A stretch of DNA of 64,000 nt from Pteria penguin. Lineage: Eukaryota > Mollusca > Bivalvia > Pterioida > Pteriidae. This document shows, piece by piece, positions 11,665-63,260 of the stretch. Positions within the stretch are counted from its first letter, which is position 1; each line of letters starts with the position of its first letter. The notes below the pieces were generated by a model. That model was not told the origin of the DNA and searched no databases. It was given only the letters and a program-made list of their open reading frames with translations. The stretch spans positions 12,939,501-13,003,500 of the forward strand of contig CM068585.1 in assembly GCA_035048485.1 (NCBI GenBank). Reading direction: 5' to 3'. Both the position numbers and the translations under genes were made by a program.

Positions 11665-21432
<9,768 letters not shown>

Positions 21433-35367: not shown

Positions 35368-38300
35368 ATTGTTGTTGTTGTTTTCATTGTTGTTATTCAG
35401 TCTTTTTAATTATTAAAACATTTACAGGATGTAATTTGTCCCCCGGGATCCCTTTGCGTCGACGGACAATGCCAGATACCAGGTATGCACATTACATCGT
35501 TTCTTTTGCCAAATATATTCGGGTTGTATACATCATTCCTGAGTCATAATATCTTATTTAACATAGTGGTGTGTCCACTATCCTCCTAACACTTTGATAA
35601 GAATATCCTATTTATTTTTGTAGATCCATGTAGGGTAAGTATCTTTTAGGCCTCTACACAATTATGTGCATGCGTATGTACTTTATATATACTTTTACTG
35701 GTACTGATAAAACTAATCAGTTTGCATATATTTTAATCAAGTCATATAGGGAGGTGTTAAACGCAGAGTTATGGCCGGTATGAAATTAACTCTTGCCAGA
35801 AATATATTAAGTAAAACAATAAGATACCGAGTAACGTGATCGAGATAAAAGACAAAATAATCAGTAAAGGAAATCACGGACCCTCAGCAAAATCCAGACG
35901 TGGTATCAGGTGCTATGGCGGAGTAGACACACCCCTGCCAAACGGCCACACCGGCCATGATGCCATAATATAAGTCGGAAGTCACATTCAGTAGACGGTG
36001 TAATACTATAATCACATTCAGTAGACGGTATAATACTGTAATCACATTCAGTTGACGGTGTAATACTGTAATCACATTCAGTAGACGGTGTTATACTGTT
36101 ATCACATTCAGAAGACGGTGTAATACTGTAATCACATTCAGTAGACGGTGTAATACTGTAATTACATTCAGTAGAGGGTGTAATATTGTAGTCACGTTCA
36201 GTTGACGGCGTAATACTGTAATCGCATTCAGTAGACGCTGTAATACTGTAATCACATTCAGTAGACGGAGTAATATTGTAGTCACATTCAGTTAACGGCG
36301 TAATACTGTAATCACATTCAGTAGACGGTGTAATACTGTAATCACATTCAGTAGACGGTGTAATACTGTAATCACATTCAGTAGACGGAGTAATATTGTA
36401 GTCACATTCAGTTGACGGCGTAATACTATAATTACATTCAGTAGATGTCGGACAATGATATCCGATAATTGTACACAAGATCTTTGTATCGTCCGTCTGA
36501 TGAATGTTAATCTTTTATTTGATATCCTTGTGATAACAAATTTTCACTAAGTTATTTGCCTCGGTGAATGAAGGGACCGTAGTGAGCTGGTAGTCAACAT
36601 GGTCAACGTATGCAGGTGATGAAGAAATGTTATGAAATCAAACTAGTTTAATTCATGTTCAAGTTCTCGAACAACGTAACCTGTCGTATTACAATACAAT
36701 ACAATAACTTATATAGCGCATTATAATAAAGTCACTCTAGTGCGCTTCACATTAAAAAAAATATGTGTACAATATGGAAAGAAACTATAAAAATACATGT
36801 GTGCATACAGTATAAAAATTACTGAACAAATCTAAAAAACAAATAAAACTAGTTTGAATTAATATTTACCTAGTGTAAAAAGGAATAAATGTGCAATTGT
36901 AAATTTACACTATATCTCTGAATTTTATTCTTTAATGAAGATTTCTCAAATTTATCATTCTAGAACGTAAACTGTCCAGCTAATACTCGCTGTCGTGAGG
37001 GATTATGTGTAGATATTGGTAAGAAACAGCTTATATCTTTGAATATCTGAGATGCTTAAATCTGCATATCGTGTATGTTTCACCTTACATTTTGTAATAA
37101 TATTTACTCATTCAGCTTGATATTAATGAACCAAATTGTCAGGGCAGTGGATTGATTGTTATCAAAAATCCGCTTACATATAAAGGAAATACAAAGTCAA
37201 ATTCTATTTCCCCCAAGTCCACAATATTTATATTTGTCTATTATGCCCTATCGTCTTCTTATTACAACACGTTGAATCTATATTCTAACCTAAATGTTAT
37301 TTTGGAATAGTTTCTAAACTTACAGTGGCTCTTCCACTCTTCATATCAGTCATACCTTTTATAAACATGTATATTTACTATACATTAACATTATTTAACA
37401 TCTATTCTATGTATAACTGATTACAGACCCGTGTCAGGTAAGCTGCCTTTTTTCTGTTTTTTAAAAATGAGAAGAAAACAAATTATGATCTGTCGTCAAA
37501 ACCTGTTGATCCTTGTGCTCCATATGAAGGAAACTTTACAAATTTTAAAATGTGTGTCTTTGATTGTGCTGATTTGGCCTGAGTGGGAAGACTGGTATCC
37601 GCAAACCAGGTAAACGCACAAATTGAGTGACGTTTGTTATTTTGATTGAAGGTTCTAAGTCTGTATCGTAACTTCAATACAAATGAATATTTTTGATTAC
37701 TTGTATTATATGTATATTATTATGTTGTTTTGATTTTTTCTGTTTCTGTGTTATTTAACTATTATCATGTTTTATGTGCATGTCCTTGGTGATTTCTGTC
37801 ATACATCAGATGCCCACGCAATAGTAATCAATTGTAGTTTTGTGCCTTATTTCAAAGAATAGTAAGCTTTGCAATAGACATTTAGCTTAGATTCATTTTG
37901 TTTCATTTATTGTATTAATTTTATGTCGTTTATTGTCTGTATGACGGGTATTGCTAACAACCTAGGGAACATGTAGTCCAAGAATCAGACATTATCTTAT
38001 TTCCAATGTTCAATGAATATTCATCGTAATACGCTGTTGCAATTGTCACAATAACGTTGAATAAATATTTTCCTTTTTAACATTAAAATAGTTTAATCCC
38101 GCTTTCATTGTTCATATCCCTGAGCACTTATTGGCTTATGTATCATAAAACTTTTCTTTAAGGCCAGAGGCGGGAGTCAAATTTTTTATATCTCCGCGTT
38201 GAAGAGTTCCACGCCGTCCGTGCACTATAATCGGCAGAAGTTCCGTTTTGACTCCGTACTTTATAATAACACTTGAGTCAATCCCATTGTTAGTCACTCT

Positions 38301-40389
38301 TCAATGCTCATATAAATCATGATTCATAACCTGAGTAGTCATTATAATTCTCCAAGGAAAGGAAATGAATCAATTGAAACCCCTGTTCAAAAGGAATCTG
38401 AAGAAGAAAGGTAATTTTGTGATATATGTTTTCGCAAGGGTATACTTGCATGACCCCCCCCCCCTCCCTTGTCCAGGACCTCTTTTCAAAAATTACGGTG
38501 TTTACCAATGATTATAATATTTTGCATTCTATGACATGAAAGCAATGTCAATTAGATACAATCATTATTACATGAAAATTGTCAAAGAGTCTAGTGCAAA
38601 ACCTGCATGTATTATGATATACCGTTTTGGACAATATATTCCCAGTGAGGCAAATATTTCCAATCATTTTCTTGGAATTGCCTAATAAGTAGTTTATATT
38701 CTTCATGCATACTTTTTGCAAAGATTGCAATACATTTTGTAGGTACTGAGCGTTGTGCTGGCAAGAGTATATCATCAAGAGAGATAACTCTTATTCATGG
38801 TTTACATAATAAATGCAAGTGTCACTTTCCCAGTGCCATTTTCATGAAAGGTACAAGGGAAAGATGCCAAGTTCCTGTCTTTAGTTAGAAATATGTATTT
38901 CAGAGATCTTGTATTTGAATTCTGAACAGAAAATATCTGCCATATCAAAGGTTACAATGAAACTCAGTAATGCTCAAGTTTGATACAGCACCTCAAAATT
39001 GATAGAAAGATATCTGAAAATTCAATAACCGGGATCTGTCCTTAAAAGGTTTTCAATTGAGTAACGATCACCAATGACAAGTTAGTACCACATTTATTTA
39101 ATCAAACGTATTTGTAATTTTCCGTCGGTGAATTAATTTATAAGAAATTAAGAAATAACTTGAATATTATAGTTTCTTTTTATTGGAAGTACAAATTTGA
39201 AAGAGCACCATTCCATGTCCGGCATTCAACGTTGAGTTAAAATACTGTAAATTCGGTGGTAATGGTATCAGCGAAAACAATAGCGAATCTCATATGGGAT
39301 GAAAGCAAGAGTCCGGAAGGAGTGAGCGTCTCCTGCTAGCATATTTCACCCATCACAAATGTTCTATAGAAACCCCTCGTGTTCTGTAATAAAATTATAT
39401 AGGTAACTTGTCAGATTTGTGTAAGTACGTCACTGCGTATGTGGTCGTGTTCCAGAATTTCATATAAGATTCTAGAAAGGGGATCCTCTTATTGTCCAAC
39501 AATATTTTTGTATTGACCACATCGAACATAATATAAAAACGAACATAATATAAAAACGATTCATACAAAAAATGTAATCCATTATATGCACTACAGTACA
39601 TTATGTTTTCTTTCAATCATTGTAAATTTATTGTAATAAAGGGCCACAGGTTCAAGCTTCCCTTTAATTTCGATCGCTTGTCCTATTTGACAATGGCACA
39701 TAAATCATTTTAAGCTGTCTATGGCAAACGTGTTAAGCAGCAGGTCAGAAGTTTATATTCTATATCAATTAAGGGAAAGCTCTCGAGACTGGATAATTAA
39801 ACACCAATTAACCAAATACGCAGATTCTTTATATGAGTATAAAGAGTACGGGTTCACTTTATGTTTATATCTAGGGAGTCACGTGTAGCAACGATGAAGT
39901 GTGCGAGAATGGACGATGTGTTCAAATAGGTAAGCCCAAGATCCATCTTCGTAGGGGCCATTGACAACATAATAATTTCCTAGTCTCTCTCATGTGATGT
40001 AATGGTTTTCAGAGTATGATACTGATAATATAGATATATCTATAAAGATACCTCATCAAAGTATGTGTATATTTCATCTCCTTCTTATTACTACATTATA
40101 TACATGTTATGTAATGATTCATCCTCCTGTAATAGATGCTTTTGACTCGGGATTTTATTATGCCTAATCCACCTTTTTATGTATAATGTTTGGGGGGGGG
40201 GGGGGGTTCATTTTCTTCATTTGACTCAATAACTTTTAGAATATTAATGACTTTCTAATCCTTAGATCCATGTTGGGTAAGTCAATTTCAGTCAGTTTCA
40301 GTTTTTATACATAAGTATAACTATATTAAATATAATTTCCATATGCATGTTTAGCTATGTATCTATATAATTGCTTATATATTTGCTTA

Positions 40390-40487
<98 letters not shown>

Positions 40488-41011
40488 TATTGTTTTACGT
40501 CGCGCCGGGAATATTTCAACCATATGGCAACTATTTGCTTAATACATTAATATTATTATATACGCATTGTATATTGCACACTGCATATTTTACAGACACT
40601 TTACAACAATTTCAATTCTTGATAGGTTAACTCGCATAAACCGGTACTTGTGACGGGGAATTCTTCAATGAAAAATTCGGGCGAAGCAACCTAGACATTT
40701 TCTCATGTAAATATTTTTCTCAGATAAGACTGGGTAGTTAGATGATATCTGCAAGTATTCAACAATCATGATTGTTGTATTAAACGCAAAGGTTTGGTAT
40801 GACAATACCAGAAAAAAAATTGTAAAAAAACGATAATAATCTGCAATATATGTCAGAGGAAGTATAATGTTCTAAAGATCAGAATGAATATTTTTTACTT
40901 CGACGCCATGTGGCAGAACATATTTGTTGCTAATTTGAAGAATGCACAGAAATGCACTTTGTAAAAATTAAAAGTTGAGAGGCGAGAAAACTGTAACAAA
41001 ATTTATGAGGT

Positions 41012-41079
<68 letters not shown>

Positions 41080-44000
41080 AATGATTGTAAATGTTCTAGA
41101 TTTTTTGATAAGACAAAAGTCATCGTATATCAGTACAATACTCCCTCGTCATACATATTACATAGCTATTCGATGATATGCTATTTTGATATTTTTAAAA
41201 AGTAGAATTATAATAAGAAGTATAAATAATGTGTAACAGCTTCATTAAATCTGCTTTCAAGCTTTATCTTGTTAATTTCTGTTGAATTGATTACCTGTCA
41301 GTTTTAAAGTAATTTGCACTATAATCGTGGATTATGATACTAGCATTGTGAATGTTATCCATTACATTAAGAAAAGTTCATTATGTATTGTATTGAAGCG
41401 ACAAAAGTTGTCGAAATGCGCATCTGGTGCACAAAATTGAAAAGTATATATGTTCTATATTTATTATGACCACTAGGCCGGTGTCACTGCTGGTGGACTG
41501 ATAACCCCGAGGGCATTATAAGTCTAGTTTTAAGTGCTTTTGTACTGACATGAAATATATACTTTAAATTTTCAGTCGTCAAATTAAGTAAATCACTCTA
41601 AAACTAAGGAGAATCTTCCTCATGCATAACTCTCTCCTTAGATAGATTCTTTGGTTCAATTTTCGGTCACTTGGTTTCAACACTGGTCTTTAAATATTTA
41701 TATATTATGAGAATTCTAATCATTCGGCCACGAGCATCGTCGAAATGCGCATCTGGTGCACAAAATTAAAAGGTATATATGTTCTATATTTATTGTACTC
41801 TAACACAGCTTCCCATTGCCCTTTTCAGAATTTTATCAAGTAGTATGGTTTATCTAATAAAGAATATCTATTTTCTTGTCTTTTACCTGAATATTTTATT
41901 ACTGTTTTACATTAGTCCGGAGATTAGAGTCTCAATGATATTTAATTGCGTTCCAGCTGGTGATTTGCCCTGTGCCTGAACAGTGTGTCGATGGTAGATG
42001 CGTAGCAAGAGGTATATATATCATATGATTATTTGGTTTCGAAATTAATACAATTATTTACCTCATTATTATTGATATTATTATTATCGATATGACAGAT
42101 AAAGCAATATAATTGGTCTAGAAAATCATGTAAGCGGTAGACAATTGTTCGCATCTTAATGTCTGATGGAACTTTTATGTCTCACAATCGAATTATTGAC
42201 CTCTGATAGAGTAGACTTGAAGATATGTGATCCCCAAAATGTCATATCAGCGTTCGGTTTCGGAAGTACTCGAGAATCATAAATCTGTCCTCAATACGTT
42301 TGGTATTGACTCAAATAAATTGAATTTAGAACTTCCATATTTGTACTGTATTCCAAAAATGCACAAAACTCCGTACAAACAACGCTTTATCGCTGGTTCT
42401 TCGAAGTGTTCCACAAAATCTGTATCGATGCTACTCACAAAAATATTATCAGAAATTAAATCTGGCCTTCATAGATATTGCGAAACAGTATATTCCAGAA
42501 GTGAAATTAATCAAATGTGGATCCTTAAAAATTCAAAAGAGTTGTTAGAACATCTAAAATCAAAAAGTTTTACTAAAATTCACTCCATCAAGTCTTTTGA
42601 CTTTTCGACTCTGTACACAACGATCCCTCATCAGAAATTAAAAGACAGATTAGCGGAAATTATTCAAAATGCATTTACTAGTAAAAACGGAAGCCGCAAA
42701 TTCAAATATATAGTAATAGGCCACGATAAAACTTACTTTGTTAGGGAAAATTCTGATTCCAAAAATAAATACACTGAAACAGCTGTCATTCAGATGTTGA
42801 ACTTTCTTATCGATAACATTTTTGTGGTGTTTGGAGGTAAAGTTTTTCAACAAATTGTCGGCATTCCAATGGGCACTAACTGTGCTCCGCTTCTGGCTGA
42901 CATATTCCTTTATTCATACGAAGCTGAGTTCATTCAGTCTTTGCTTTCGCAAGGAAAAAAACAATTGGCTCTTGGCTTCAATTTTACTTACAGATATATA
43001 GATGACTTGCTTTGAATTAATAATCCTTCATTCGCGGATTACCTTAGCATCATCTATCCAAGTGAACTGGAGGTCAAAGAAACCACAGAAACTAGTAATT
43101 CTACTTCGTATTTAGATATTATGTTGTCTTTCGACATTAATGGTCAATTGAACACCTCACTCTATGACAAACGTGACGATTTCAATTTCGCTATCACAAA
43201 CTTTCCTTTCATAAGTAGCAACATTCCATCATCGCCCGCATACGGCGTATTCATATCTCAGTTAATACGTTATTCCAGAGCATGTTCAAATTACAATGAC
43301 TTTGTTCTGAGGGCTAGGCGACTTTCAGTTAAGCTGCTCAACCAGGGTTATATATGTGCTAGACTAGCATCGTCACTGAGGATGTTCTACGGTCGTTACG
43401 AGACTCTTATTACTCCATATGATATCTCGTTATCCAGACTTTTAAATGATATTCTGGACCGAGACCGATTCCGATCACTTTACACAGATTTGACACCTTC
43501 TATACTAGAAGGTTACCTACTTCGACTTCTCCATATATAGATACATATGGAATTCACACGATATGACTCTTTCTACGGGGTATATGTGACGGGTGTTGCT
43601 AGCAAGCAGGAGATGCTCACTCTCCCCGGGCACCTGATCTCACTCCATCACAGGGGTTCACATATGCTCTTCAAGTAGACATATTTTGTTATTTTCCATT
43701 TGTTTTTCATTTTCACTGATTTTGTATGTCCTATGGTTTCATGATTTTTGGATTTGTGGTTTGGATTTATCCATCATCTTTACATTGTTAAAGAATCTAT
43801 TGAACCCAAAAATATCATACCTCCCGTTGGCCTCGGGAGAAACTAACTGTATAAATATTTGCCATATATTTTGCCCTCTTATGTGAAATGCTAAGATACC
43901 GATCAGTAGACAATAAAAACATTTATCGTATATAGAATATTGTTCATTCTTATTCTACATTTACTGAATGCAGATCTAAACACAAAAAGAGAGTTTATCA

Positions 44001-44775
44001 ATTACTAATATAACATTTCTTTGAAATGTATTAAACTTTTAAAAGCATAACGTTATTTGATCAATACAAATATAAAACAAGCTTGTAACAAATATATTCA
44101 CACCAATAATTTACATCCATATTGATCTCACGTTCAAAGTTTTCATTCATTTTCATTCACTTCCTTTTCAGATCTGTGCCGGGTATGACATACTCCATGT
44201 TTCCTTATTGTTTTATTTACAATTAAGTTTTTATGTTTGTATTATAACACTTTCTAAATATTATTGTGGCTTTCAACTGAAACTCCGAGTTGGAAATTCT
44301 AGTTAATAATACACTTGTCTAAATCAAATACAAAGTATGGCTTTTGTCTTCAACGCAATTCATTTTAAACTTTTATACTGACCTCCTAATTAAATGCTGT
44401 TTTATGGTAACACTAATATTCTGAACTTCTAATAAAATGCTGACGCATGGTAACACTAATAAAGATTCAACTGGCGAGTACTTATATAAAAATTATATAT
44501 ATATAACATTTTGAAACAGGATATAGTATGTCCGCCTGGTGCAAGGTGTGTCCAAGGTGTCTGTACACAAGGTATGTTAAATTTAGATTTCTTTCTGTAA
44601 AACATCTAAAGGTAAATCGAGATGTACGTTATTTATACCATATGTACATCATGTAATTTGTAATTCGTACCGAATTCGCATCAGATATCGGTGGGGATTT
44701 TTCTAAGGTCTTTTTTCATATCCTGCCTCTCTGTTTGTCATTGCCTCTCTATTTGTCCTTTTCCTTAATCATATT

Positions 44776-44810
<35 letters not shown>

Positions 44811-49518: not shown

Positions 49519-49582
<64 letters not shown>

Positions 49583-55500: not shown

Positions 55501-58500
55501 AGTTTTTATACGCCCGTCATAAGACGGGACGTATTATATTATGGCGTTGTCCGTCCGTCCGTGGGTCCGTCCGTCCGTCCGGGGTCACGTTTTCCTTACT
55601 TCTTTCTGTGCTCTTTCAAGATATTGGATTGAAACTTGAAACTCAAGAATTTTACAGTTTTCCGGACTTTTTTTGCAGTCTTTAAAGGTATTGAATTAAA
55701 ACTTAGTATATAACTTTATATCAACGAGGGTCAGTAGCAGTATGCATTTGGGTTTGATTGCTTTGTTTCTGCCAGAGTTACAGCCCTTGAACTTGGACTT
55801 TTTTCTGCAGTCTTTAAAGGTATTGGAATAAAACTTTGTATATTGCTTTATATCAATTAGGGTCAGTACCAATTCGCATTCGGGTATGATTGTTTTGTTT
55901 CTGCTAGAATTAAGGCCCTTGAACATAGAAATTCTCAAGGATTTTACAGTTTTCCGGACTTTTTTCTGCAGTCTTTATAGGTATTGATTAAAACTTCATA
56001 TGCAACTATATATCAATAAGGGTCGGTGCCAGTTGGAATTTGGGGATTGGATTGTAACTTCATTCAAATTGATCCCCTTCAAGCTAAGCGACGGGCGTAT
56101 TATGCTATGCTAGGCGGCGTTGCTCTTGTTTGATTGGGGCTTTTTTAAAGATATTGAGTAGGGATTTTTATTTTAACTTAATCATTGTAACTTCTCTCTG
56201 ATCAATAATTTCATTAGCTACGTTCTTTTTGTTTTCTTACAGATCTATGTGCGGTAAGTAAGATTATTGTACATGGCTATGAAGTATTCTGCTTTCTATA
56301 TATAGCGATGTAGCTAGCGGTATATATAGATGAATTTCATTGTTCAATATTACATTTCTTCTATTGTTCTTTTTTTAAGCCGGTGTGGCCTAGTGGTATC
56401 GCGCTGGACTCCTGATCGGGAGCCGGGGTTCGAGTCCCGCTCTGGTCATGCCGGTGTTCTGTCTTTCGGATGAGACAGTAAAAACCGAGGTCCCGTGTTG
56501 TAGTATACATTGCACGTTAAAGAACCCTCACTGCTTCGGGTGGGTCCGTTGCAAAGGTCAAAATTTGTATGCCCCGCATCAGGCAGATGCCGTCACTATA
56601 TACGTGAAATATTCGTGGTGTGACGTTAAACAAAAATCAATCAATCAATCAATCTATTGTTTTTAATTTCTTTCTATACAAAACCGCCATTGTCTACATG
56701 TATCTAGTGCATTATGTGAAACAGCATTGAAAAAAGCGTATGTTTTTTATGCAGTTTAAGGTCTAATCATGAAAACCTATTTCTCGTATCTTTTAAATGA
56801 TCATCATTACTTATATAATGTAAGTCTTCGTGATACAGGGTGTGACATGTCCCCAAGGATCAAGGTGTGTAAGAGGCAGATGTAGACAACAAGGTAGGGT
56901 GAATATAAAGCTATCGATTACATACAAAATTTTAAAAATATGGACCGATACTCGTTTTTCCGTTTTCACTCATAATTGAAATGTCTTATGCGTGTTTATT
57001 TATACAATCTGAATTATTTAACAGAAAACATACTCAAAGTATGATACTAAGGATTGTGTATCGCATATTTCATTTATATATTTATTTGTTTATTTGCATT
57101 GTGTATTTATTTATCCATGTGTTTATCTTCCTTTCAGATATTAATTTTCCATTAATATTTCCATTATTGATTTATTTGTTTATTCTATAGTTTTTTATTT
57201 ATGTTTTTTTCAGCAGGCTGTCCCGTAAGTAATTATATAACTTTACAATCATTGAGTATTTTCAAAACAAATTCATTGTTACGCAATAAAACATGCGTAG
57301 ATTTCGAAGTTTCTTATTTATGTTGGAATAATATAAAGTATCTTTCACAATAATTGTCAAAAACTACACAAATTATTACCACTACATTTTAACGCAATGT
57401 CCATATTACTTGATAGGCTACTCCGTGTGAACCTAATCAGAGATGTTTCCTTGGACGATGCATCGATTTCATTGGTAAGTTTTAAAGCCGTAAAAGTCTC
57501 GTGCTACATACCTTTTGTATGTACCTTTTACCAACCCATATTTAGTAAAATAATGCTTACTCAGTCGTTTACCTCTGATATGTTCTAATTCACAAGTTGG
57601 TCTTTATTTGTCGAAAAGCCCTATTTTAATCCATGTATTTACAGTACCGCCGTAATATGGGTGAAGCATAGTAAAGTAAAACAATCAGTCCTTTTATATC
57701 ACAGTCTACTATCCTTGCTTTCCCTATAGATTTGCTCTTGTAAGTCAGGGTTCCTTATGATTGGGCATATGATATTTAAGATTTTCATTTCTTTACAAAT
57801 GCCAATTTTATTATATTTTTAATTTGTTTTTCATATAACAGATCCCTGTGAGGTAAGTATGTGTACATACATACACTTATCATATCAAATTTCCATTTAC
57901 TTCTTTTGATATTGATGTTTAAGTAGACTGAAGGCACAAAATGCTTTGAAACCTATTTTAATTGACCACAATTCACTGCACCTTGAAATTTACTTTAATA
58001 TCGACTTCAGCCAAATTTTTGATACTCCTTAGGCACTTGCTAAGCAAATACAAACAAAATAACAAAGCCAGAGGTAATATCTTTTTAATATATGAAGATG
58101 GCCCTATGAAAAGCTAAAAATTAAGGCTACATATTTTTTTATTTCCCTAAAATTATGGTATCATACGTGATTTGAATACATCAAAGTATACATTGATTGT
58201 TTACTGTTCAGTTGATAGATTGTGACCCCGCATCAAGATGTATAAGTGGCCGCTGTGTACCTGTAACAGGTGAGTATTTTCATGTAGCTTGATATTGTTT
58301 GATTAAAGCGTTTCATCCCTATTTTGCATTTTTGGGGGGATGAAATGCTTTCTGTACAAGTTCTGGTTGGCTGCAGTCATCTCGTGCTGTGGAGTTGAGA
58401 CATTGTCTATACAAGTATTTTGTTGTATGTTGAGTTGGGTATTATATGATTTGGTGTAATTGACCACCCTGGTGTACTGTTGGGTATTTTATGCTTTGGT

Positions 58501-61500
58501 GTAGCTGACCACCGTGGTGTGCTGTTGGGTATTTTATGCTTTGGTGTGGGTGACCACCGTGGTGTGCTGTTGGGTATTTTATGATTTGGTACTGTAATGT
58601 ATAAAACTGTTGTATTTTATAAATTTTGATTTTCTTTTTTTACAGACACATGCTTGGTAAGTTAACCCATTTTATACCGTAAAGTAGTTTTATATTACAC
58701 AATCGTTATTATCGTAATGTATCATTGTCATAATTAGTTACAGTGTATCTGTAATATTGCGCATTTTCATTATGCAGTCTTTATACAGTTCTAAATTGTT
58801 ATAACATCACAAAGACAAAATACTTTATATAAATTTGTTATTTTAGACCGTTAGATGTGGACCTAGAGAGCGTTGTGTCAGAGGTCGTTGTATTCCAGGT
58901 AAGACATTCGGTATTCATTTCATTTATTTCTCATTAAAACATATAATTACAGAATTTCAAACATATTATACTAGATACTGATTTATATGTAACAATACTA
59001 CTATATATTATTGTATTTGAATTAAAACAAAAGAAAAGACATCAAAAGCAGTAAATGTTTACTTTTCCCAAATTACATACCACACTCATCCTAAGCATGT
59101 ACATCTATTCGTATACTACATTTCTATATATGTTTTTACTAATTTATTACATTTACAGATTTCATAGGAGGCTCTTGTGACGTAAGTATTATCAATACTA
59201 CTCTAACAAAGACGAATATTTAATTATTAAAAGGTCGTATATGGTCTCTGCAATAGACTCCGTATGGATAAAAATATCTTAAATCATTGTCAAACATTTT
59301 GGTGAGAAATAATTAGGGAATATGAAAGTTCAATTAAGATATTTTTAAATTAGTATGAAGAATGAAGTAATTGTTTTTTGTTTTGTTTTTGTTTTTCTCT
59401 TCCTGAGGCACTTGTCTCACCTTCCTGAGTACATAAATGTCCACCATGTGGTACACTATTTTAATTTAAATGTCCGTTACATTTCTAGTTACTATTTACA
59501 TTTCTTTTGATGTGAATATGACATGATAAGTATGGAAAAGTCTTCTCAATCATAAACAGAGTCGATTACTATTCTAGTCTCTAATCCAGTACGTTGTACT
59601 TCTTCAACCGTCATATGTAGCCCGTAGGATGTGCAACTAAATCGAGATGTACATGTACAAAACAATTTATTCTGAACAATTATTGTCAGAGTCTACACAA
59701 AAGAGCATATAAAACGCGTTTTATATCAGTTATGATTACTTTCCAATGTCAAATTAAAATAACTATGAATAAATGCCAAATAGTGTTTTTAAAACATGCG
59801 AGAAAAGAAAAGGTGAATAACTGAAACGTGTTCGACAGAATTTTGAAAGCAGGACATTGGTGGATTTGGTCGGAAAATTTTATCAAAAAAGGTTCATTTT
59901 TGACCACTTTAGGGCTGCACCCCCTCCCCCCCCCCCTTTCCAGACCGAATAGTGCAAAACATTAATCATGGGAAACTGCAACACCCCCTTTCAAAAATTT
60001 CTAGATCTGCCTATGCAGGATAACTCTAAATATACGAGAAATTTATAGTTTTTGTTATAATTCTAACTTTTCAACTTCGATTTACTGTATTAACAAATAA
60101 TTGTAAATTATTTTTTTAAGATTAAAAAGTATCTACCTCATGAATAGTTCTGTCCATAGATTGGTTCTTTGCAATTGGTTTGCTCTTCAGACATATATAC
60201 CTTGGATTTCCACAAATTTACCGTGATAAAAGGGATGTGTAAATTATTCTAAAACTAAGGAATAGCATTGTCCTAACTTAAATTGTCTTTTTCTTGGTTA
60301 TATAAACAGTTTCTGATTTTAAATGAACATTTCAAATTATACAGAATAAATATTCCTGCTGCCAAAGTTATATTTCATAGTATGTACATGTTCAATAACT
60401 GAATAACTTATGCTACGATGTCTTCATTTCAGAATGTACAATGTGGCCCAGGAAGAAGATGTGTCTTAGGAATATGTACAAGAGGTATTTAGTTTTTAAA
60501 GAGTATCACAATTTTTATTGATTCAACAATTTCAATACGACAATAACTTGCATTAGTTATAGAATTTGGTCATACACGACAGTATACCTCTTTGGACATT
60601 CATAGACCCTAGGAATCCTAGGTCAAAACAGGTGACCGAGATAAGCAAGTAAACTTCGTTATTTGGACCCCTCTGTATTATCCTCCCATAACAAATATGG
60701 ATGTGGTTTAAGTCTCCATATAAGAGATAATCATACATTGAGATAAAAACATAAAATCAATATAATAGTGATTATGATAGTGATTATGATAGTGATTATG
60801 ATAGTGATTATGACATAATAGTAAATATATAACAGCTTCCAAAGTGTCATATCAAGACATTAGAACATGTATTTATGTATTTTTAATTCATTTTAGATCG
60901 ACCAAATGACCCTTGCGCAGTAAGTTTTTGGCATTTTTACACTCTTACATGTATGATACTTACAATATTTCATACAACTACCTTAACGTAAATAGAAAAG
61001 AAATTGGTTACCAACGAAAAACAAATACACGCCAAGTCATATCCACGTAATAATACACGTTAAGTCATATCCAAGTAATAATACACGTCAAGTCATACCC
61101 AAGTAATAATATACGTCAAGTCATACCACAAGTAATAATACATGTCAAGTCATACCACAAGTAGTAATACACGTCAAGTCATACCACAAGTAATAATACA
61201 CGTCAAAATCATGTCACAGGTAACAATACACGTCAAGTCATACCACAAGTAACAAATCACGTCAAGTCATACCACAAGTAACAATACATGTCAAGTCATC
61301 TGACTTTAAGTCATAGTCAGTATACTGATTTGTAGCATATGAAACAAGCGCTGTAGCGTAATTTAGATTTTAATGCAGAAATCTTACAAGTTAATTTATA
61401 ATTGCTCTCAAATTTAGTGGTTAAAATTTCGAACAATTGGCCCCTGAATGATACAAACACAAAGGAACTTATTAATTCCAATGTTATTCACGACTAGCTT

Positions 61501-63260
61501 TATCCTGCCACTATACTTTTACTTTTGTTAGACGGTAACGTGTAGAAGAGGAGACAAATGCGTGCACGGCAGATGTATTAGGGGTAATTAACTAACTATA
61601 TAGTTCATCTAATATTTTAATAGACTGATGATTTGATATGGGCAAAACCAGGAATACAAAGAATATATAGCATATTGTTGTTGTACAAAGTTTCATCACG
61701 ACACTCAAATTAAGATTACTTAAGGGAGTCCAGAATTTTCTTTATTTCTGAATCTTGCTTTAAAGCATGCTCGTAAATTTAAAATAATGTAAATAGACCC
61801 CACGGTTTAGTAAGCCATTAAAACCAACAAACGTAAATACATATCAAGATATTTAATCCATAACGTATTTTCAGATCGGCCGACTGACCCTTGCGCGGTA
61901 CGTGTTCAGAACATTTATGCATCTTTCATATTTCATGGTTATCCTGCATAACGAGAATATAACACTTATATTTTCTAACGTGGCTAATCTTTTCTTATAA
62001 ACGTCGTATCTTTTAAGTGGACTTTGATAAGAAAACTGAAAATCTATTTTTCCATATATAATAACTCCTATCTTTCAAATGTGAAATTGAAATACGAAGA
62101 ACATAATTTTTATTTCATTTATTTATTTTGTTTTATTTTATTATTATTATTGTTTTTTCAAGGATAGATCTTTTTCACAAACAATGATTTTGTACCATAA
62201 TTCCTTTCTATTTTGATAGACGGTATCATGTATGACAGGAGAGACATGTATCCTGGGCAGGTGTATCAGAGGTATTTCACATTAATTACGCAAATTAATT
62301 AAACTAGACCTGAAATATATTGAAATTAATATAATGAAAATAAAATATGAAATAGAATGCATAGCATGACATTTTTTTTTTCTGAAATACAGCTATTAAG
62401 GAAATTTAGTTATATATTCCTTTCTTTAAATGATTCATGTAATACCAATCTGATTTGTAATACCAATATGATTTGTAATACCAATATGATTTGATATATT
62501 ATTTCAAATAAAATTGTGTTTTCAAAACAAAATGTGAAGGGACCCGTAGTATTGCGCACAATTCAATTCCAAGTCAGACAAAATCATTCGAAAAATATAC
62601 CAAATCAGTAATCAAGAAGTCATGGGATAAATGTCAACAAGGAAAATGTAGCAACTGTTTCATTTCATTATCTGATATTCTCCCATATCAGATATGTAAG
62701 GGATAGAGGGCAGAGTTATAGGTACATGTATATAAAATATAAACAATTAAACGAAAAGTAGGGGCAAAACCCTCTTTACTTGCTTCCCCCCACCGCTTAC
62801 ACCGGTGGCCATTTCAATACAGTTACAATATGGATCATATGAATATGTTTCCAATAACGAGCCTTTTAAGCATATCTCGGTTATCCTTAATTCAAACCAA
62901 ATATTAACCAATCTTATCAAGAGGTAACCAATATATCTCATCAACGACATAAACAAAACGAGATGCACAATGAAGTGTACAATGAAGTGTACAATGAGGT
63001 GTACAATGAGCCGCAATGTAAAAAATTTCCAATGTTTAGGTATCTGTAAATCTATAATGCTCTTTAAATTGGCGTATTCAGCTTCCTAGACCGTGATAAA
63101 TTGCATTAGCATCATTGATTTACAATTTATCAATAATATTCCTTAAGTGTTCATTCATCGTTCATTCACAACAAGATTATCATAGACACCTTTGACAAGA
63201 ATTAACACATGTACACGATGATTTTTATTTTATTTAGATCGTTTCACAGATCCTTGTAGG
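24635..63260 (+). CDS. Gene C: microexon gene for a secreted four-cysteine repeat protein (5' part)
   Basis: 44 exons join in one open frame of 513 codons if one copy of exon A1 is used, and the gene continues past the right edge. After a signal-peptide exon, short A exons (11, 14, 20, 23 or 26 nt, phase 1 to 0) alternate with B exons (52, 55, 58 or 61 nt, phase 0 to 1). Each A+B pair encodes one module, commonly D-P-C-x-x-V-x-C-P-x-x-x-x-C-x-x-G-x-C-V. Thirteen A exons are exactly 11 nt. The cysteine spacing resembles the first half of follistatin N-terminal (FOLN/EGF-like) modules, but I cannot assign a family. The protein is probably extracellular, with two disulfides per module. Any whole A+B pair can be skipped in frame. 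Coding density is 4 percent. I do not recognise a named homologue. Confidence 0.87.
24870..25470. repeat. 69-bp tandem repeat carrying a complete exon
   Basis: Nine units of 69 bp (one internally deleted to 41 bp), each made of acceptor, 20-nt exon, donor and about 40 bp of intron (GTAAGTATACCACACGATGA). Units are more than 95 percent alike, so the amplification is recent or homogenised. Confidence 0.93.
24884..25427 (+). CDS. Gene C exon A1: eight tandem copies of a 20-nt exon
   Basis: Identical 20-nt exons CTCAGCCGGGAGATCCATGC at 24884-24903, 24953-24972, 25063-25082, 25132-25151, 25201-25220, 25270-25289, 25339-25358 and 25408-25427. Each follows CTTACTCTAG and precedes GTAAGT. They encode AQPGDPC (phase 1 to 0). 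A ninth copy at 25022 has lost its donor. One copy, or any 3n+1 copies, keeps frame with exon B1, and the unit has no stop in any frame. Which copy is used cannot be told from sequence. Confidence 0.85.
25471..26069. repeat. Diverged exon-repeat units
   Basis: About nine units of 60-69 bp related to the 69-bp repeat. Most keep the donor-side block (GTAAGTATGCCACATGATGA or variants), but the acceptor and exon are eroded (ATAACTCGAGAGATCACG instead of the exon). It bridges the intact array and the 52-bp satellite. Confidence 0.8.
26070..29095. repeat. 52-bp satellite derived from the exon repeat
   Basis: About 58 copies of a 52-bp unit containing TAATACAGCCAGCGGGACCA and CATCAAAGTATACCTCATGA. 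Aligned with the 69-bp unit, CTAATACAGCCAGCGGGAcc matches the acceptor and exon start, and AAAGTATACC matches the donor with its GT changed (CGTAAGT to TCAAAGT). A 355-bp block starting at 26608 is repeated at 26963. Confidence 0.88.
29309..29360 (+). CDS. Gene C exon B1
   Basis: 52 nt, phase 0 to 1, acceptor GTATTTAG, donor GTAAGA. It encodes GGRCLPWMVCDTAQRRC, completing module 1 with the DPC from A1. Cysteine spacing is slightly unusual (C-x3-C-x5-C-x6-C), and this module is the least typical. Confidence 0.75.
30116..31290 (+). CDS. Gene C module 2 (exons A2 and B2)
   Basis: A2 at 30116-30141 (26 nt) encodes VQEEGFGCL and has donor GTAAGC. B2 at 31236-31290 (55 nt) encodes LVPCVTGTCDRRTGRCVN. 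A2 is the longest short exon. The intron between them holds a MITE at 30877-31078. Confidence 0.8.
30877..31078. mobile_element. TA-flanked MITE with 33-bp inverted ends, copy 2
   Basis: The left end, CAGACCTTTTCACGATAAGT followed by GCGGTCTTACAA, is the reverse complement of the right end with few mismatches. TA flanks both sides (30877-30878, 31077-31078). It is the same family as 15840-16044. It has no coding capacity. Confidence 0.88.
31690..32310. repeat. Degenerate tandem repeat in intron B2-A3
   Basis: About 17 irregular copies of a 28-40 bp motif built from ATCTAACGCTTTTCGTGATA and ACATGTATAT. It is interspersed with TTCACGCTTCTTGTGATATG variants, suggesting a two-part higher-order unit in the middle. 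Confidence 0.8.
32619..33336 (+). CDS. Gene C module 3 (exons A3 and B3)
   Basis: A3 at 32619-32638 (20 nt) encodes DALNPCA. B3 at 33285-33336 (52 nt) encodes GIDCDPGFVCRNGQCVN. Donors are GTGAGT and GTAAGC. The intron contains the TTA microsatellite. Confidence 0.87.
32917..33148. repeat. TTA trinucleotide microsatellite
   Basis: About 230 bp of ATT/TTA repeats with a few interruptions, in intron A3-B3. It produces false poly-leucine and poly-tyrosine frames. Confidence 0.97.
33629..34633 (+). CDS. Gene C module 4 (exons A4 and B4)
   Basis: A4 at 33629-33651 (23 nt) encodes AGNAACSN. B4 at 34573-34633 (61 nt, the longest B exon) encodes ELICPQGFVCRNGFCIRDTT. B4 follows a 58-bp tandem array that ends 12 bases before its acceptor. 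Confidence 0.86.
34033..34562. repeat. 58-bp tandem array against a splice acceptor
   Basis: Nine copies of a 58-bp unit (AATATGTATACAGTATATAG then ACATTTACCACTTGGATT), with little divergence. The last unit runs directly into the acceptor of exon B4 (TTTATAATTTCAG), so the branch-point region lies within or next to the repeat. Confidence 0.93.
34680..34792. repeat. Short direct duplication
   Basis: A segment of about 55 bp with GATTTTATTTCGGGCCATGG occurs twice in tandem in intron B4-A5. Confidence 0.8.
35212..35482 (+). CDS. Gene C module 5 (exons A5 and B5)
   Basis: A5 at 35212-35225 (14 nt) encodes IDMCQ. B5 at 35428-35482 (55 nt) encodes DVICPPGSLCVDGQCQIP. The intron is only 202 bp, and its middle is mostly a TAG microsatellite (35268-35382). 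Confidence 0.88.
35268..35382. repeat. AGC/TAG microsatellite
   Basis: CAG repeats pass into about 28 TAG/AGT trinucleotides and then TTG repeats, in intron A5-B5. It produces a false poly-serine frame. Confidence 0.95.
35624..37018 (+). CDS. Gene C module 6 (exons A6 and B6)
   Basis: A6 at 35624-35634 is the first 11-nt microexon (DPCR), with donor GTAAGT. B6 at 36964-37018 (55 nt) encodes NVNCPANTRCREGLCVDI. B6 is closest to B12 and B13 (NVNCPxNTRCR). Confidence 0.87.
35966..36448. repeat. 30-bp tandem repeat in intron A6-B6
   Basis: About 16 copies of a 30-bp unit (ATCACATTCAGTAGACGG). The period is a multiple of three, which creates a false 190-residue repeat protein on the minus strand. 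Fragments at 35905-35960 belong to the dispersed family at 9905. Confidence 0.93.
36690..36765. repeat. Short dispersed-repeat-like segment
   Basis: ACTTATATAGCGCATTATAA and CTAGTGCGCTTCACATT resemble the AGCGC-rich tail common in interspersed repeats of many animals. Only one copy is in this window, so the call is weak. Confidence 0.35.
37427..39929 (+). CDS. Gene C module 7 (exons A7 and B7)
   Basis: A7 at 37427-37437 (11 nt) encodes DPCQ. B7 at 39875-39929 (55 nt) encodes GVTCSNDEVCENGRCVQI, most like B14 (NRNEVCRRGQC). The intron is 2.4 kb, AT-rich, with a dispersed-repeat fragment near 37570-37690 and a C tract near 38454. Confidence 0.87.
40266..42011 (+). CDS. Gene C module 8 (exons A8 and B8)
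   Basis: A8 at 40266-40276 (11 nt) encodes DPCW. B8 at 41957-42011 (55 nt) encodes LVICPVPEQCVDGRCVAR. The intron holds a GATA array, a CT array and Penelope LTR-like repeats. The reverse transcriptase starts about 100 bp after B8, in the next intron. Confidence 0.87.
40390..40488. repeat. GATA microsatellite and SINE tail
   Basis: About 24 GATA repeats in intron A8-B8. The next bases (TTGTTTTACGTCGCGCCGGG, then AATATTTC) look like the reversed 3' end of a family 1 SINE, so the array may have grown from a SINE tail. Confidence 0.85.
41012..41078. repeat. CT microsatellite
   Basis: About 33 CT dinucleotides in intron A8-B8. Confidence 0.97.
41384..41800 (+). mobile_element. Penelope-type LTR-like repeats with broken hammerhead motifs
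   Basis: Two partial copies in tandem. Each ends with TCGAAATGCGCATCTGGTGC followed by TATATATGTTCTATATTTAT. The first (41391-41431) has a mutated hammerhead core. The second (about 41479-41790) has lost the core and stem II between AGCATC and GTCGAAA. The 41505-41790 part matches 47622-47935. Confidence 0.75.
42120..43550 (+). pseudogene. Penelope-like reverse transcriptase, inactivated
   Basis: An open segment at about 42227-43015 continues after one in-frame stop (TGA at 43013-43015) through 43540. Motifs in order: LYCIPKMHKTPYKQRF, IKSFDFSTLYTTIP, GIPMGTNCAPLLADIF, YRYIDDLL (catalytic aspartates), TSYLDIML, and a C-terminal thumb-like part. This order fits Penelope-like elements. No GIY-YIG endonuclease is seen. 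The lost 5' end and the stop make it inactive. It lies in gene C intron B8-A9 in the same orientation as the gene. Confidence 0.8.
43560..43800. repeat. Dispersed repeat after the Penelope copy
   Basis: Segment 43635-43790 is nearly identical to 5845-5992. Before it, AGCAAGCAGGAGATGCTCAC resembles the CAGGAGACGCTTACTCCT units at 17.8-18.5 kb. It may be the 3' flank of the element family. Confidence 0.7.
44172..44571 (+). CDS. Gene C module 9 (exons A9 and B9)
   Basis: A9 at 44172-44182 (11 nt) encodes DLCR; its donor GTATGA is the weakest of the microexons. B9 at 44520-44571 (52 nt) encodes DIVCPPGARCVQGVCTQ. Confidence 0.87.
44738..44850. repeat. Direct repeat split by poly-T
   Basis: A segment of about 40 bp (CTCTCTATTTGTCCTTTTCC) is present on both sides of a 31-base T run, in intron B9-A10. 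Confidence 0.85.
45088..45632 (+). CDS. Gene C module 10 (exons A10 and B10)
   Basis: A10 at 45088-45098 (11 nt) encodes GGCP, replacing the usual DPC. B10 at 45575-45632 (58 nt) encodes VEPCAPNQRCILGQCIDVI. The same odd pairing occurs in module 16. Confidence 0.88.
45950..46060. repeat. Dispersed repeat fragment
   Basis: TTGACCGTCCTTAGTTGGTA and TTTTTGTGATGCCTTTTTAT match 18330-18380 at moderate identity. Confidence 0.55.
46418..46673 (+). CDS. Gene C module 11 (exons A11 and B11)
   Basis: A11 at 46418-46428 (11 nt) encodes DPCA. B11 at 46619-46673 (55 nt) encodes GVSCPSGSRCIDGSCQAQ, a textbook example of the module. The intron is 190 bp. Confidence 0.9.
46921..46996. repeat. Short perfect-stem inverted repeat
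   Basis: TATAGAAACAAAACAACTTT followed by TATATA is matched inverted by ATATATAAAGTTGTTTTGTT followed by TCTATA around an AT-rich loop of about 20 bases. It lies in intron B11-A12. It may be a hairpin or the remnant of a palindromic MITE. Confidence 0.85.
47111..47511 (+). CDS. Gene C module 12 (exons A12 and B12)
   Basis: A12 at 47111-47121 (11 nt) encodes DPCQ. B12 at 47457-47511 (55 nt) encodes NVNCPPNTRCRAGECVTR. It is nearly a duplicate of B13 at the protein level. Confidence 0.9.
47622..47935 (+). mobile_element. Solo Penelope-type LTR-like repeat
   Basis: It matches 41505-41790 over about 285 bp (AAGTCTAGTTTTCAGTGCTT to TATATACGTTCTATATTTAT) and has no coding sequence. It carries a complete hammerhead motif near its end. 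It lies in intron B12-A13. Confidence 0.8.
47843..47888 (+). ncRNA. Hammerhead ribozyme motif (short stem III)
   Basis: All conserved positions are present: core CTGAAGA (47850-47856, fitting CTGANGA), stem II GACA/TGTC (47857-47860, 47866-47869), GAAA (47870-47873), and a short stem III closed by A-T. The cleavage triplet is ATA (47879-47881). Stem I is AGCATCA-side GCATCA with TGGTGC (47844-47849, 47882-47887). Penelope-like elements are known to carry hammerheads with short stem III. Confidence 0.75.
48892..49168 (+). CDS. Gene C module 13 (exons A13 and B13)
   Basis: A13 at 48892-48902 (11 nt) encodes DPCE. B13 at 49114-49168 (55 nt) encodes NVNCPANTRCRAGECVLI. The intron is 211 bp. Confidence 0.9.
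49520..49577. repeat. GT and GA microsatellites
   Basis: Five GT repeats followed by about 23 GA repeats in intron B13-A14. Confidence 0.95.
49678..50105 (+). CDS. Gene C module 14 (exons A14 and B14)
   Basis: A14 at 49678-49688 (11 nt) encodes DLCE. B14 at 50051-50105 (55 nt) encodes GIICNRNEVCRRGQCVAV, most like B7. It is followed by the largest intron after the satellite intron (6.1 kb). Confidence 0.9.
50485..50575. repeat. Dispersed repeat fragment
   Basis: GGTGAGATCAGATGCCATGG and GTCACACCCGCCGTAATG match the family at 9905-10016. Confidence 0.65.
51056..51290 (-). mobile_element. Decayed family 1 SINE
   Basis: The body (ATTTCACGTACCTTGTGACG, AGAACAGGACACCGGTGTGA) matches the other family 1 copies at low identity. 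The tRNA-like head is badly eroded. It is an old insertion in intron B14-A15. Confidence 0.7.
51900..52065 (-). mobile_element. LINE C-terminal fragment, inverted
   Basis: The minus strand encodes NDKCNTCENEIENTTHLL followed by FDCKTVTTIW, the CX2C-X8-H-X4-C zinc-binding tail of L1/Tx1-type LINE ORF2 proteins. It abuts a plus-strand LINE at about 52068, so the two pieces are inverted relative to each other. Confidence 0.7.
52068..54106 (+). pseudogene. Broken LINE ORF2 (L1/Tx1-like reverse transcriptase)
   Basis: Three frames in series (to 52238, 52177-52437, 52419-53810, then 53789-54106) make one RT with frameshifts. Motifs: KYITEGEKNTKFFLSLEKQ, KNKSPGSDGLPCEFY, LLFIDFEKAFDAVEW, GIRQGCPISAILYLF, IQHADDLTLVLKDE (the catalytic ADD), then IWNKTDRIKRNALIGK and GGTGIIDIETKLKA. 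No endonuclease domain is found upstream, so the copy is 5'-truncated as well as frameshifted. It lies in gene C intron B14-A15, sense orientation. Confidence 0.87.
54107..55507. other. Unassigned intron DNA after the LINE
   Basis: 1.4 kb of AT-rich DNA without a recognised exon. Some may be decayed LINE 3' sequence, but no motif was identified. Confidence 0.4.
55508..56130. mobile_element. Composite repeat with ACGCCCGTC / GACGGGCGT ends
   Basis: The left end (TACGCCCGTCATAAGACGGG) and the right end (GACGGGCGTATTATGCTATG) are partly inverted. Inside are CCGTCCGT repeats and three tandem units of about 125-180 bp containing GTCTTTAAAGGTATTG and AGGGTCAGT. It ends in GGCGTTGCTCTTG, similar to 5070-5095. 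It is probably a non-autonomous DNA element. Confidence 0.65.
56243..56893 (+). CDS. Gene C module 15 (exons A15 and B15)
   Basis: A15 at 56243-56253 (11 nt) encodes DLCA. B15 at 56839-56893 (55 nt) encodes GVTCPQGSRCVRGRCRQQ. A SINE lies in the intron between them. Confidence 0.9.
56379..56655 (+). mobile_element. tRNA-derived SINE (family 1)
   Basis: The head GTGTGGCCTAGTGGTATCGC with B box GGTTCGAGTCC, the body, and a tail of AATCAATCAATCAATCAAT match the copy at 23536 closely. Likely target duplication: CTATTGTT plus a T run on both sides. It lies inside the intron of module 15. Confidence 0.9.
57214..57474 (+). CDS. Gene C module 16 (exons A16 and B16)
   Basis: A16 at 57214-57224 (11 nt) encodes AGCP. 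B16 at 57417-57474 (58 nt) encodes ATPCEPNQRCFLGRCIDFI. Both match module 10, including the missing D-P before cysteine. Confidence 0.9.
57842..58269 (+). CDS. Gene C module 17 (exons A17 and B17)
   Basis: A17 at 57842-57852 (11 nt) encodes DPCE. B17 at 58212-58269 (58 nt) encodes LIDCDPASRCISGRCVPVT. Confidence 0.9.
58432..58595. repeat. 48-60 bp tandem repeat in intron B17-A18
   Basis: Three to four copies of GTTGGGTATTTTATGCTTTG plus TGACCACCGTGGTGTGCT, ending 50 bp before microexon A18. Confidence 0.85.
58646..58898 (+). CDS. Gene C module 18 (exons A18 and B18)
   Basis: A18 at 58646-58656 (11 nt) encodes DTCL and is the last 11-nt microexon in the window. B18 at 58847-58898 (52 nt) encodes TVRCGPRERCVRGRCIP. 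Confidence 0.9.
59159..60484 (+). CDS. Gene C module 19 (exons A19 and B19)
   Basis: A19 at 59159-59181 (23 nt) encodes DFIGGSCD. B19 at 60433-60484 (52 nt) encodes NVQCGPGRRCVLGICTR. From here on A exons are 23 nt and add four residues before the cysteine. Confidence 0.88.
59860..60015. mobile_element. Decayed relative of the 24259 TIR element
   Basis: It shares TTTTATCAAAAAAGGT, a C-rich tract, and CAAAAATTTCTAGATCTGCC, with the ends partly lost. It lies in intron A19-B19. Confidence 0.6.
60757..60812. repeat. 12-bp tandem repeat
   Basis: Four to five copies of ATAGTGATTATG in intron B19-A20. Confidence 0.9.
60897..61583 (+). CDS. Gene C module 20 (exons A20 and B20)
   Basis: A20 at 60897-60919 (23 nt) encodes DRPNDPCA. 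B20 at 61532-61583 (52 nt) encodes TVTCRRGDKCVHGRCIR. The donor is GTAATT. Confidence 0.88.
61020..61300. repeat. 29-bp tandem repeat in intron A20-B20
   Basis: About ten copies of AATACACGTCAAGTCATACC with CACAAGTAAT spacers. Confidence 0.9.
61875..62271 (+). CDS. Gene C module 21 (exons A21 and B21)
   Basis: A21 at 61875-61897 (23 nt) encodes DRPTDPCA. B21 at 62220-62271 (52 nt) encodes TVSCMTGETCILGRCIR. It is nearly a copy of module 20, a recent duplication. Confidence 0.88.
63238..63260 (+). CDS. Gene C exon A22 (module 22, partial)
   Basis: 23 nt encoding DRFTDPCR, acceptor TATTTAG, donor GTAAGT. The matching B exon lies beyond the right edge, so the gene continues. Confidence 0.85.

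What the first reader, a model, noticed from the sequence alone, without database searches (positions are those of the whole stretch)
35624..63260. Gene built from alternating 11-nt microexons and 52-61-nt exons
At least 22 short exons alternate with 21 longer ones, and thirteen of the short ones are exactly 11 nt. Every short exon runs phase 1 to 0 and every long exon phase 0 to 1, with consensus AG/GT borders, and all join in one open frame. A microexon encodes only the D-P-C of each module; the other three cysteines come from the next exon. This is an extreme exon organisation for a repeat protein. Eleven-nt exons are hard to define by the normal exon-definition machinery.
Basis: seen in the sequence. 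Interest (0 to 1): 0.93.

Follow-up and report, generated by a model that had tools for sequence, protein, structure and literature searches.

The report
Secreted-protein gene of alternating tiny exons
An animal gene, probably from a shellfish, appears to be cut into more than forty tiny exons, half of them only 11 to 26 bases long and each carrying one cysteine of a small repeated module, so a secreted disulfide-rich protein can be made only if the tiny exons are spliced in.

Summary
On the + strand 21 long exons (52-61 nt) alternate with 22 short ones (11-26 nt, 13 of them exactly 11); short exons run phase 1 to 0, long ones 0 to 1. With a signal-peptide-like exon at 24635 they give one 513-codon frame over 38.6 kb that runs off the window. 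The quoted interval holds only 17 short and 16 long exons. Controls: an 11-nt D.C+GTAAG motif occurs 11 times in the gene, never on the other strand, mean 0.01 in shuffles; short candidates score at least 9 in 18 of 20 gaps, against 0 of 20 reversed. Related long exons differ mainly at third positions. Skipping any tested exon shifts the frame; dropping any adjacent pair does not. Best reading: a class 1-1 four-cysteine module, resembling FOLN but below its Pfam cut-off, split by an extra phase-0 intron after its first cysteine and multiplied about 20 times, so that its microexons must all be included. How they are recognised is inferred. No transcript or relative with this exon structure was available. 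Exon 2 sits in 8 identical copies in a minisatellite.

The parts
24635..24686 (+). Exon 1: start codon and signal-peptide-like sequence MKNVVTLLIALAVQHIE, ends phase 1
   Evidence: read; joined in frame; signal peptide judged by eye
24867..25466 (+). 69-bp minisatellite holding eight identical 20-nt copies of exon 2 (24884, 24953, 25063, 25132, 25201, 25270, 25339, 25408), each with ag and gtaagt(a/g)t, and one broken copy at 25022
25553..29093 (+). 52-bp minisatellites (25553-25991 and 26076-29093) related to the exon-2 repeat unit
   Evidence: alignment of each 52-bp unit to the 69-bp unit reached by 0 of 1000 shuffles
29309..29360 (+). long exon 1 (52 nt, divergent module)
30116..30141 (+). 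short exon, 26 nt, VQEEGFGCL
31236..31290 (+). long exon 2 (55 nt, divergent module, weakest of the series)
32619..32638 (+). short exon, 20 nt, DALNPCA (weak donor score)
33285..33336 (+). long exon 3 (52 nt)
33629..33651 (+). short exon, 23 nt, AGNAACSN
34573..34633 (+). long exon 4 (61 nt)
35212..35225 (+). short exon, 14 nt, IDMCQ
35428..35482 (+). long exon 5 (55 nt)
35624..35634 (+). microexon, 11 nt, DPCR
36964..37018 (+). long exon 6 (55 nt)
37427..37437 (+). microexon, 11 nt, DPCQ
39875..39929 (+). long exon 7 (55 nt)
40266..40276 (+). microexon, 11 nt, DPCW
41957..42011 (+). long exon 8 (55 nt)
44172..44182 (+). microexon, 11 nt, DLCR
44520..44571 (+). long exon 9 (52 nt)
45088..45098 (+). 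microexon, 11 nt, GGCP
45575..45632 (+). long exon 10 (58 nt)
46418..46428 (+). microexon, 11 nt, DPCA
46619..46673 (+). long exon 11 (55 nt)
47111..47121 (+). microexon, 11 nt, DPCQ
47457..47511 (+). long exon 12 (55 nt)
48892..48902 (+). microexon, 11 nt, DPCE
49114..49168 (+). long exon 13 (55 nt)
49678..49688 (+). microexon, 11 nt, DLCE
50051..50105 (+). long exon 14 (55 nt)
56243..56253 (+). microexon, 11 nt, DLCA
56839..56893 (+). long exon 15 (55 nt)
57214..57224 (+). microexon, 11 nt, AGCP; the 8-nt version from 57217 (cagcag acceptor) scores higher
57417..57474 (+). long exon 16 (58 nt)
57842..57852 (+). microexon, 11 nt, DPCE
58212..58269 (+). long exon 17 (58 nt)
58646..58656 (+). 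microexon, 11 nt, DTCL
58847..58898 (+). long exon 18 (52 nt)
59159..59181 (+). short exon, 23 nt (or 11 nt from 59171), DFIGGSCD
60433..60484 (+). long exon 19 (52 nt)
60897..60919 (+). short exon, 23 nt, DRPNDPCA
61532..61583 (+). long exon 20 (52 nt)
61875..61897 (+). short exon, 23 nt, DRPTDPCA
62220..62271 (+). long exon 21 (52 nt)
63238..63260 (+). short exon, 23 nt (or 11 nt from 63250), DRFTDPCR; the next exon would lie beyond the window

Best explanation
This is a functional animal gene, probably of a bivalve, for a secreted protein made of at least 21 tandem modules of about 22 residues, 18 of them with the exact spacing C-x4-C-x5-C-x4-C. Each module is a symmetric class 1-1 unit (phase-1 introns on both sides), as is usual for extracellular modules (recalled), but a further phase-0 intron cuts it just after its first cysteine, leaving an 11-nt (sometimes 14-26-nt) microexon, typically G|AY-CCN-TGY-NNG. 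The two-exon cassette was multiplied, partly perhaps as blocks of several modules. Because neither exon is a multiple of three, losing one shifts the frame while losing a cassette does not; so the microexons must be included constitutively. I infer that strong GTAAGT donors and T-rich acceptors do this, with recognition across the flanking introns (intron definition, with PRP40/PRPF40A-type factors) more likely than across the exon. In the protein, the cysteine of the microexon would be tied by a disulfide to the part encoded by the next exon. Shown: anatomy, frame, coding constraint, donor difference. Inferred: transcription, inclusion, mode of recognition, disulfides, secretion.
For: One open frame through 44 exons. 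Motif and gap controls. In four pairs of related long exons that share no exon, differences at codon positions 1/2/3 are 8/11/28 (P = 0.0006); pair 47457/49114 has pS 0.71 and pN 0.03, and pS > pN in 159 of 171 pairs of the 19 long exons compared. Self-BLAST finds four exon pairs and each match ends within 11 nt of the exon borders; identity 21-60 nt upstream of six pairs is 0.18-0.43. In twelve D.C 11-mers the A of Asp and the first two bases of the Cys codon never vary. In 21 short against 21 long exons, donors match GTAAGT better (mean 5.57 against 4.76 of 6, P = 0.0003; G at +5 in 21 against 16) and T content upstream is higher (0.58 against 0.49, P = 0.016). Single skips shift the frame in 42 of 42, with a stop within 28 codons in 41; adjacent pairs are multiples of 3 in 41 of 41. 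PRP-40 intron-definition model: PMC8378409, passages. Constitutive 4-nt exon of MPC1: PMC9929638, passages.
Against: No RNA evidence, and no relative with this exon structure: the collections at hand are mainly prokaryotic and viral, and the genome search was never reachable. Seven of 20 short exons do not beat every shuffle. In 3 of 20 gaps the short exon kept was not the top scorer (44172, 47111, 57214); with a size limit of 26 nt and the cysteine spacing required, only 57214 remains second, to its own 8-nt version. Short exons were picked partly by donor score, which may inflate the donor difference. Whole 9-base U1 match (P = 0.11), longest U1 run (P = 0.09) and pyrimidine fraction (P = 0.09) do not differ clearly, and the last exon base is G in only 14 of 21 short against 20 of 21 long exons. 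pN reaches or exceeds pS in 12 of 171 pairs. The MPC1 authors explain their microexon by exon definition through proximal intron sequence, not by intron definition. No UGC enrichment upstream (3 of 21 against 5 of 21). The 3' end of the gene is outside the window.
Confidence: 0.82

Rival explanations
1. A diversity generator in the manner of schistosome micro-exon genes: two-exon cassettes are skipped or included as units, giving proteins with different numbers and orders of modules.
For: Every adjacent exon pair tested is a multiple of three (41 of 41), so a cassette or run of cassettes can be dropped in frame; MEG genes encode secreted proteins, have very short exons and long introns, and vary by splicing of central exons (PMC10526429, passages).
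Against: Single-exon skipping shifts the frame in 42 of 42, whereas MEG exons are mostly multiples of three. Good donors and constraint on the closest modules fit constitutive use. Sequence alone cannot exclude cassette skipping.
Confidence: 0.2
2. The long exons are real, but some of the assigned short exons are wrong, for example 8 instead of 11 nt at 57217, 11 instead of 23 nt at 59171 and 63250, or a different exon in the weak gaps (32619, 45088, 40266).
For: Frame-preserving alternative acceptors exist; scores in these gaps are matched by some shuffles; at 47111 a 32-nt candidate (46871) scored marginally higher, 12.9 against 12.8.
Against: One Cys per short exon in 22 of 22; 18 of 20 gaps score at least 9 with the spacing required, against 0 of 20 reversed.
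Confidence: 0.3
3. A decayed pseudogene.
For: Minisatellites, two reverse-transcriptase remnants and other repeats lie in the introns.
Against: No stop in 513 codons over 44 exons; third-position bias of differences.
Confidence: 0.04
4. A chance alignment of splice-like words.
For: Such words do occur by chance in single introns (0.70 per 20 gaps).
Against: 11 GTAAG motif hits against a shuffle mean of 0.01; long-exon pattern rows 30 on + against 3 on -, the latter all one place.
Confidence: 0.01

Closest known systems
Schistosoma micro-exon genes (MEG)
   Same: Secreted proteins with a signal peptide; 10 to 20 very short exons between introns of 0.1-5 kb; hard to annotate (PMC10526429, passages)
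   Different: MEG exons are mostly multiples of three, in the majority 15 bp, and central ones are alternatively spliced; here all 42 tested exons are non-3n, short and long exons alternate strictly, and the protein is an array of four-cysteine modules
Constitutive non-3n microexons such as the 4-bp exon of MPC1
   Same: Skipping breaks the frame and inclusion is constitutive (PMC9929638, passages)
   Different: One microexon in that gene, about 20 in series here; recognition there is ascribed to exon definition by proximal intron sequence
Plant microexons of 1-15 nt
   Same: Many constitutive, conserved in position and phase, with strong signals in flanking introns (PMC8831610, passages)
   Different: No repeated cassette is described in the passages seen
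Neural microexons (SRRM4/eMIC programme)
   Same: Exons of up to about 27-30 nt
   Different: Those are neuron-regulated (abstract starts of PMC8797185 and PMC12287369 in the listing); mostly in frame (recalled); here non-3n, no UGC enrichment, secreted protein
FOLN / follistatin N-terminal subdomain; RhTx peptide
   Same: Best profile matches to solved structures, over the first three cysteines only: follistatin 1lr7 E 0.0066 and RhTx 2mva E 0.011; Pfam FOLN E 0.0058
   Different: Pfam score 17.2 under the 21.1 cut-off; the match does not reach the fourth cysteine; no Kazal part follows (Kazal recalled as the usual partner)
Tandem DPC modules of Myxococcota and other bacterial or metagenomic proteins
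   Same: Same cysteine spacing and DPC start in the proteins read; 30-48% identity in the 120 of 166 hits listed
   Different: Predicted without introns; their contigs were not inspected

Membership tests
Micro-exon gene (MEG) | many very short exons between longer introns | tested here: met
   44 exons of 11-61 nt, introns 141-6137 nt, median 437
Micro-exon gene (MEG) | exons mostly multiples of three | tested here: not met
   42 of 42 tested internal exons are non-3n; MEG feature from PMC10526429
Micro-exon gene (MEG) | alternative splicing of central exons | not testable with these tools
   no transcripts
Micro-exon gene (MEG) | signal peptide | tested here: inconclusive
   exon 1 encodes MKNVVTLLIALAVQHIE, judged by eye, no predictor run
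FOLN domain (PF09289) | Pfam gathering score | tested here: not met
   17.2 bits, cut-off 21.1, on the 489-residue protein without exons 1 and 2
DUF7107 (PF23416) | Pfam gathering score | tested here: not met
   20.5 bits, cut-off 24.6
Constitutive microexon | 30 nt or less, included in every transcript | not testable with these tools
   size met for 22 short exons; inclusion rests on frame logic only
Class 1-1 extracellular module | phase-1 introns on both sides of the module | tested here: met
   every short+long cassette of the 42 exons begins and ends at a phase-1 junction

The most novel reading that the evidence does not exclude
A single gene needs more than 20 non-3n microexons to be included one after another in the same transcript, so its frame acts as an all-or-nothing check on splicing; the 11-nt size has been kept through many rounds of cassette duplication by selection on splice sites as much as on protein; and its exon 2 has spread into a minisatellite of eight identical exon copies of which only 1, 4 or 7 can be used in frame. 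This would be a natural multi-copy test bed for constitutive microexon recognition.
Probability: 0.45. Interest if true: 0.72.

Novelty: new variant of a known kind. Interest (0 to 1): 0.62.

Why it matters
Microexons are mostly studied as single, tissue-regulated exons. A gene that depends on about twenty obligatory 11-26-nt exons would show that the spliceosome of an ordinary animal can handle them in series, would allow the cis signals to be read from many parallel copies within one gene, and warns that gene finders which drop very small exons will miss or break such genes.

Tried and rejected
Neural-microexon signals: no UGC enrichment upstream of short exons (3 of 21 against 5 of 21); UGCAUG within 200 nt downstream 4 of 21 against 1 of 21, too few to use. 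Intron-length asymmetry between the two sides of short exons: none (medians 437 and 419, P = 0.67). Extra long exons: an HMM of the 21 gave no further hit above 8 bits in six frames; it was trained on those 21. PDB search with the joined protein gave one hit, E 0.97, taken as chance. Structure of a bacterial or metagenomic relative (P0001, alignment A2 of 13 of the 166 proteins found): its tandem modules come out as repeated two-stranded hairpins with block pLDDT 77-92, pTM 0.40; the fold search gave, by titles, barrel proteins of FABP, avidin and similar kinds, which I take to match its N-terminal barrel, so it says nothing on the modules' kin. Cassette relatedness hints at block duplication (modules 6-7 like 13-14, 10 like 16, 11 like 15), not tested with a tree. 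The two 52-bp repeat units compared with each other were matched by 7 of 1000 shuffles. Literature: microexon+bivalve 0 papers; microexon+mussel 1, on LSD1/RCOR; micro-exon+Mytilus 0; microexon+mollusc 15, none on such a gene by title and abstract start, two of them looked at by passages; other searches, listings only. The library is open-access papers only, so absence from print is not shown. SCREP paper PMC6262176: outline and abstract only.

Full report
What is there. A scan for long exons (AG, 40-79 nt, open in phase 0 to 1, C-x4-7-C-x3-6-C, GT) gave 30 rows on the + strand: 21 distinct exons between 29309 and 62271 form the series; rows at 804, 807 and 56490 and variant ends of the same exons were set aside. 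The - strand gave 3 rows, all one place at the edge of a tandem repeat. Between neighbours, short exons of the right phase were sought with splice matrices trained on the long exons only; the one kept was the top scorer in 17 of 20 gaps (the others: 44172, where the top row lies inside the next long exon; 47111, 12.8 against 12.9; 57214, whose 8-nt version scores higher). The 42 exons join in one open frame of 1467 nt. Upstream, 24635-24686 reads ATG...G with a signal-peptide-like sequence, followed by a 20-nt exon ending in DPC; with them the model has 44 exons, 1539 nt, 513 codons, no stop, over 38.6 kb. Further 5' exons were not sought. The gene runs off the right end of the window.

Is it chance. 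The 11-nt motif with GTAAG, written after seeing the exons: 11 on + in 29-64 kb, 0 on -, 0 and 0 in the first 29 kb, mean 0.01 in 100 Markov shuffles; without GTAAG 13, 0, 1, 1 and mean 0.61. Best in-phase short candidate with cysteine spacing: >= 9 in 18 of 20 gaps, 0 of 20 reversed gaps, 0.70 per 20 shuffled gaps; better than the reversed gap in 20 of 20; better than all 60 shuffles in 13 of 20. So the series is secure as a whole, single weak members less so; the first two long exons are also weak.

Is it coding. Four pairs of related long exons sharing no exon differ at positions 1/2/3 by 8/11/28 (P = 0.0006). The closest pair has 8 silent and 1 replacement difference; pS exceeds pN in 159 of 171 pairs of 19 long exons, the two divergent ones left out. 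Self-BLAST shows four exon pairs whose matches stop within 11 nt of the borders. Among twelve D.C 11-mers the fixed bases are those of the Asp second position and the Cys first and second positions; Pro is Leu in three and Thr in one. This fits long selection on protein with introns free to drift; retroelement remnants and minisatellites lie in those introns.

How it is built. Each cassette of one short and one long exon is bounded by phase-1 introns and so is a 1-1 module; the extra phase-0 intron falls, in the 11-mers of DPCx type, one codon after the first cysteine. The codon split by the phase-1 intron begins with G in 21 of 22 cases, so the residue is D, G, A or V (I once): the conserved Asp may be favoured by the splice site as well as by the protein. 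Single skips of internal exons shift the frame in 42 of 42 and lead to a stop within 28 codons in 41 (the last one tested meets none before the window's last exon); adjacent pairs are multiples of three in 41 of 41.

How it may be spliced. Short exons have better intronic donor bases (GTAAGT match 5.57 against 4.76 of 6; G at +5 in 21 of 21 against 16 of 21) and more T upstream (P = 0.016); whole-U1 measures and pyrimidine fraction differ only weakly, and the exonic -1 G is rarer in short exons (14 against 20 of 21). Printed work holds that exons this small cannot be defined across the exon and proposes intron definition with PRP-40 (PMC8378409, passages); a constitutive 4-nt exon is instead ascribed to exon definition through proximal intron sequence (PMC9929638, passages); plant microexons have strong intronic signals (PMC8831610, passages). 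I lean to intron definition here, as an inference.

What the protein is. Consensus DPCxxVxCxxxxRCxxGxC over 19 modules, 18 of them with exact spacing. Nearest solved structures by profile are the follistatin N-terminal subdomain and the RhTx peptide, over three cysteines; nearest Pfam models are DUF7107 and FOLN, both under their cut-offs. The same module occurs in tandem in bacterial proteins, one of which is modelled as repeated hairpins. A secreted, disulfide-rich extracellular protein is likely; its task (matrix, byssus, shell or defence) cannot be told from this.

The exon-2 minisatellite. The 20-nt exon is repeated exactly eight times in 24867-25466, each copy with its acceptor and donor; one further copy is broken. 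Neighbouring copies are 49 nt apart (once 90), less than the smallest intron of the model (141), and two copies together would shift the frame, so one is presumably used at a time. The 69-bp unit is 23 codons and open in the same frame, so that retention of whole units, for example 25063-25427, would also keep the frame. The 52-bp arrays down to 29093 are related to it.

Organism. Repeats look like those of a bivalve; this is recalled, not tested. The window's assembly could not be searched.

Noticed in passing
24867-25466: Eight exact copies of a 20-nt exon with splice sites form a 69-bp minisatellite; much of the array is also an open frame in the exon's own frame.
   Followed up: yes
26076-29093: 52-bp minisatellite of about 58 copies, related to the exon-2 unit.
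   Followed up: partly
42221-43540: Open frames inside an intron, the first reverse-transcriptase-like (RVT_1 E 0.00026, under cut-off), the second without a Pfam hit.
   Followed up: partly
52410-53810: Reverse-transcriptase open frame (RVT_1 E 2e-28), probably a LINE remnant, in the 6.1-kb intron.
   Followed up: partly
11656-12222: Open frame with a possible signal peptide, cysteines and a coiled coil; perhaps an exon of another secreted protein. No Pfam family above its cut-off.
   Followed up: partly
59159/59171 and 63238/63250: Paired acceptors 12 nt apart, both in frame: a possible route between 11-nt and 23-nt exons.
   Followed up: no
22231-22303: tRNA-Cys (anticodon gca) found by ARAGORN; may be gene or repeat.
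   Followed up: no
56380-56650: Repeat that looks like a tRNA-derived SINE (recalled), ending in CAATCAATCAATC, just before long exon 15.
   Followed up: no
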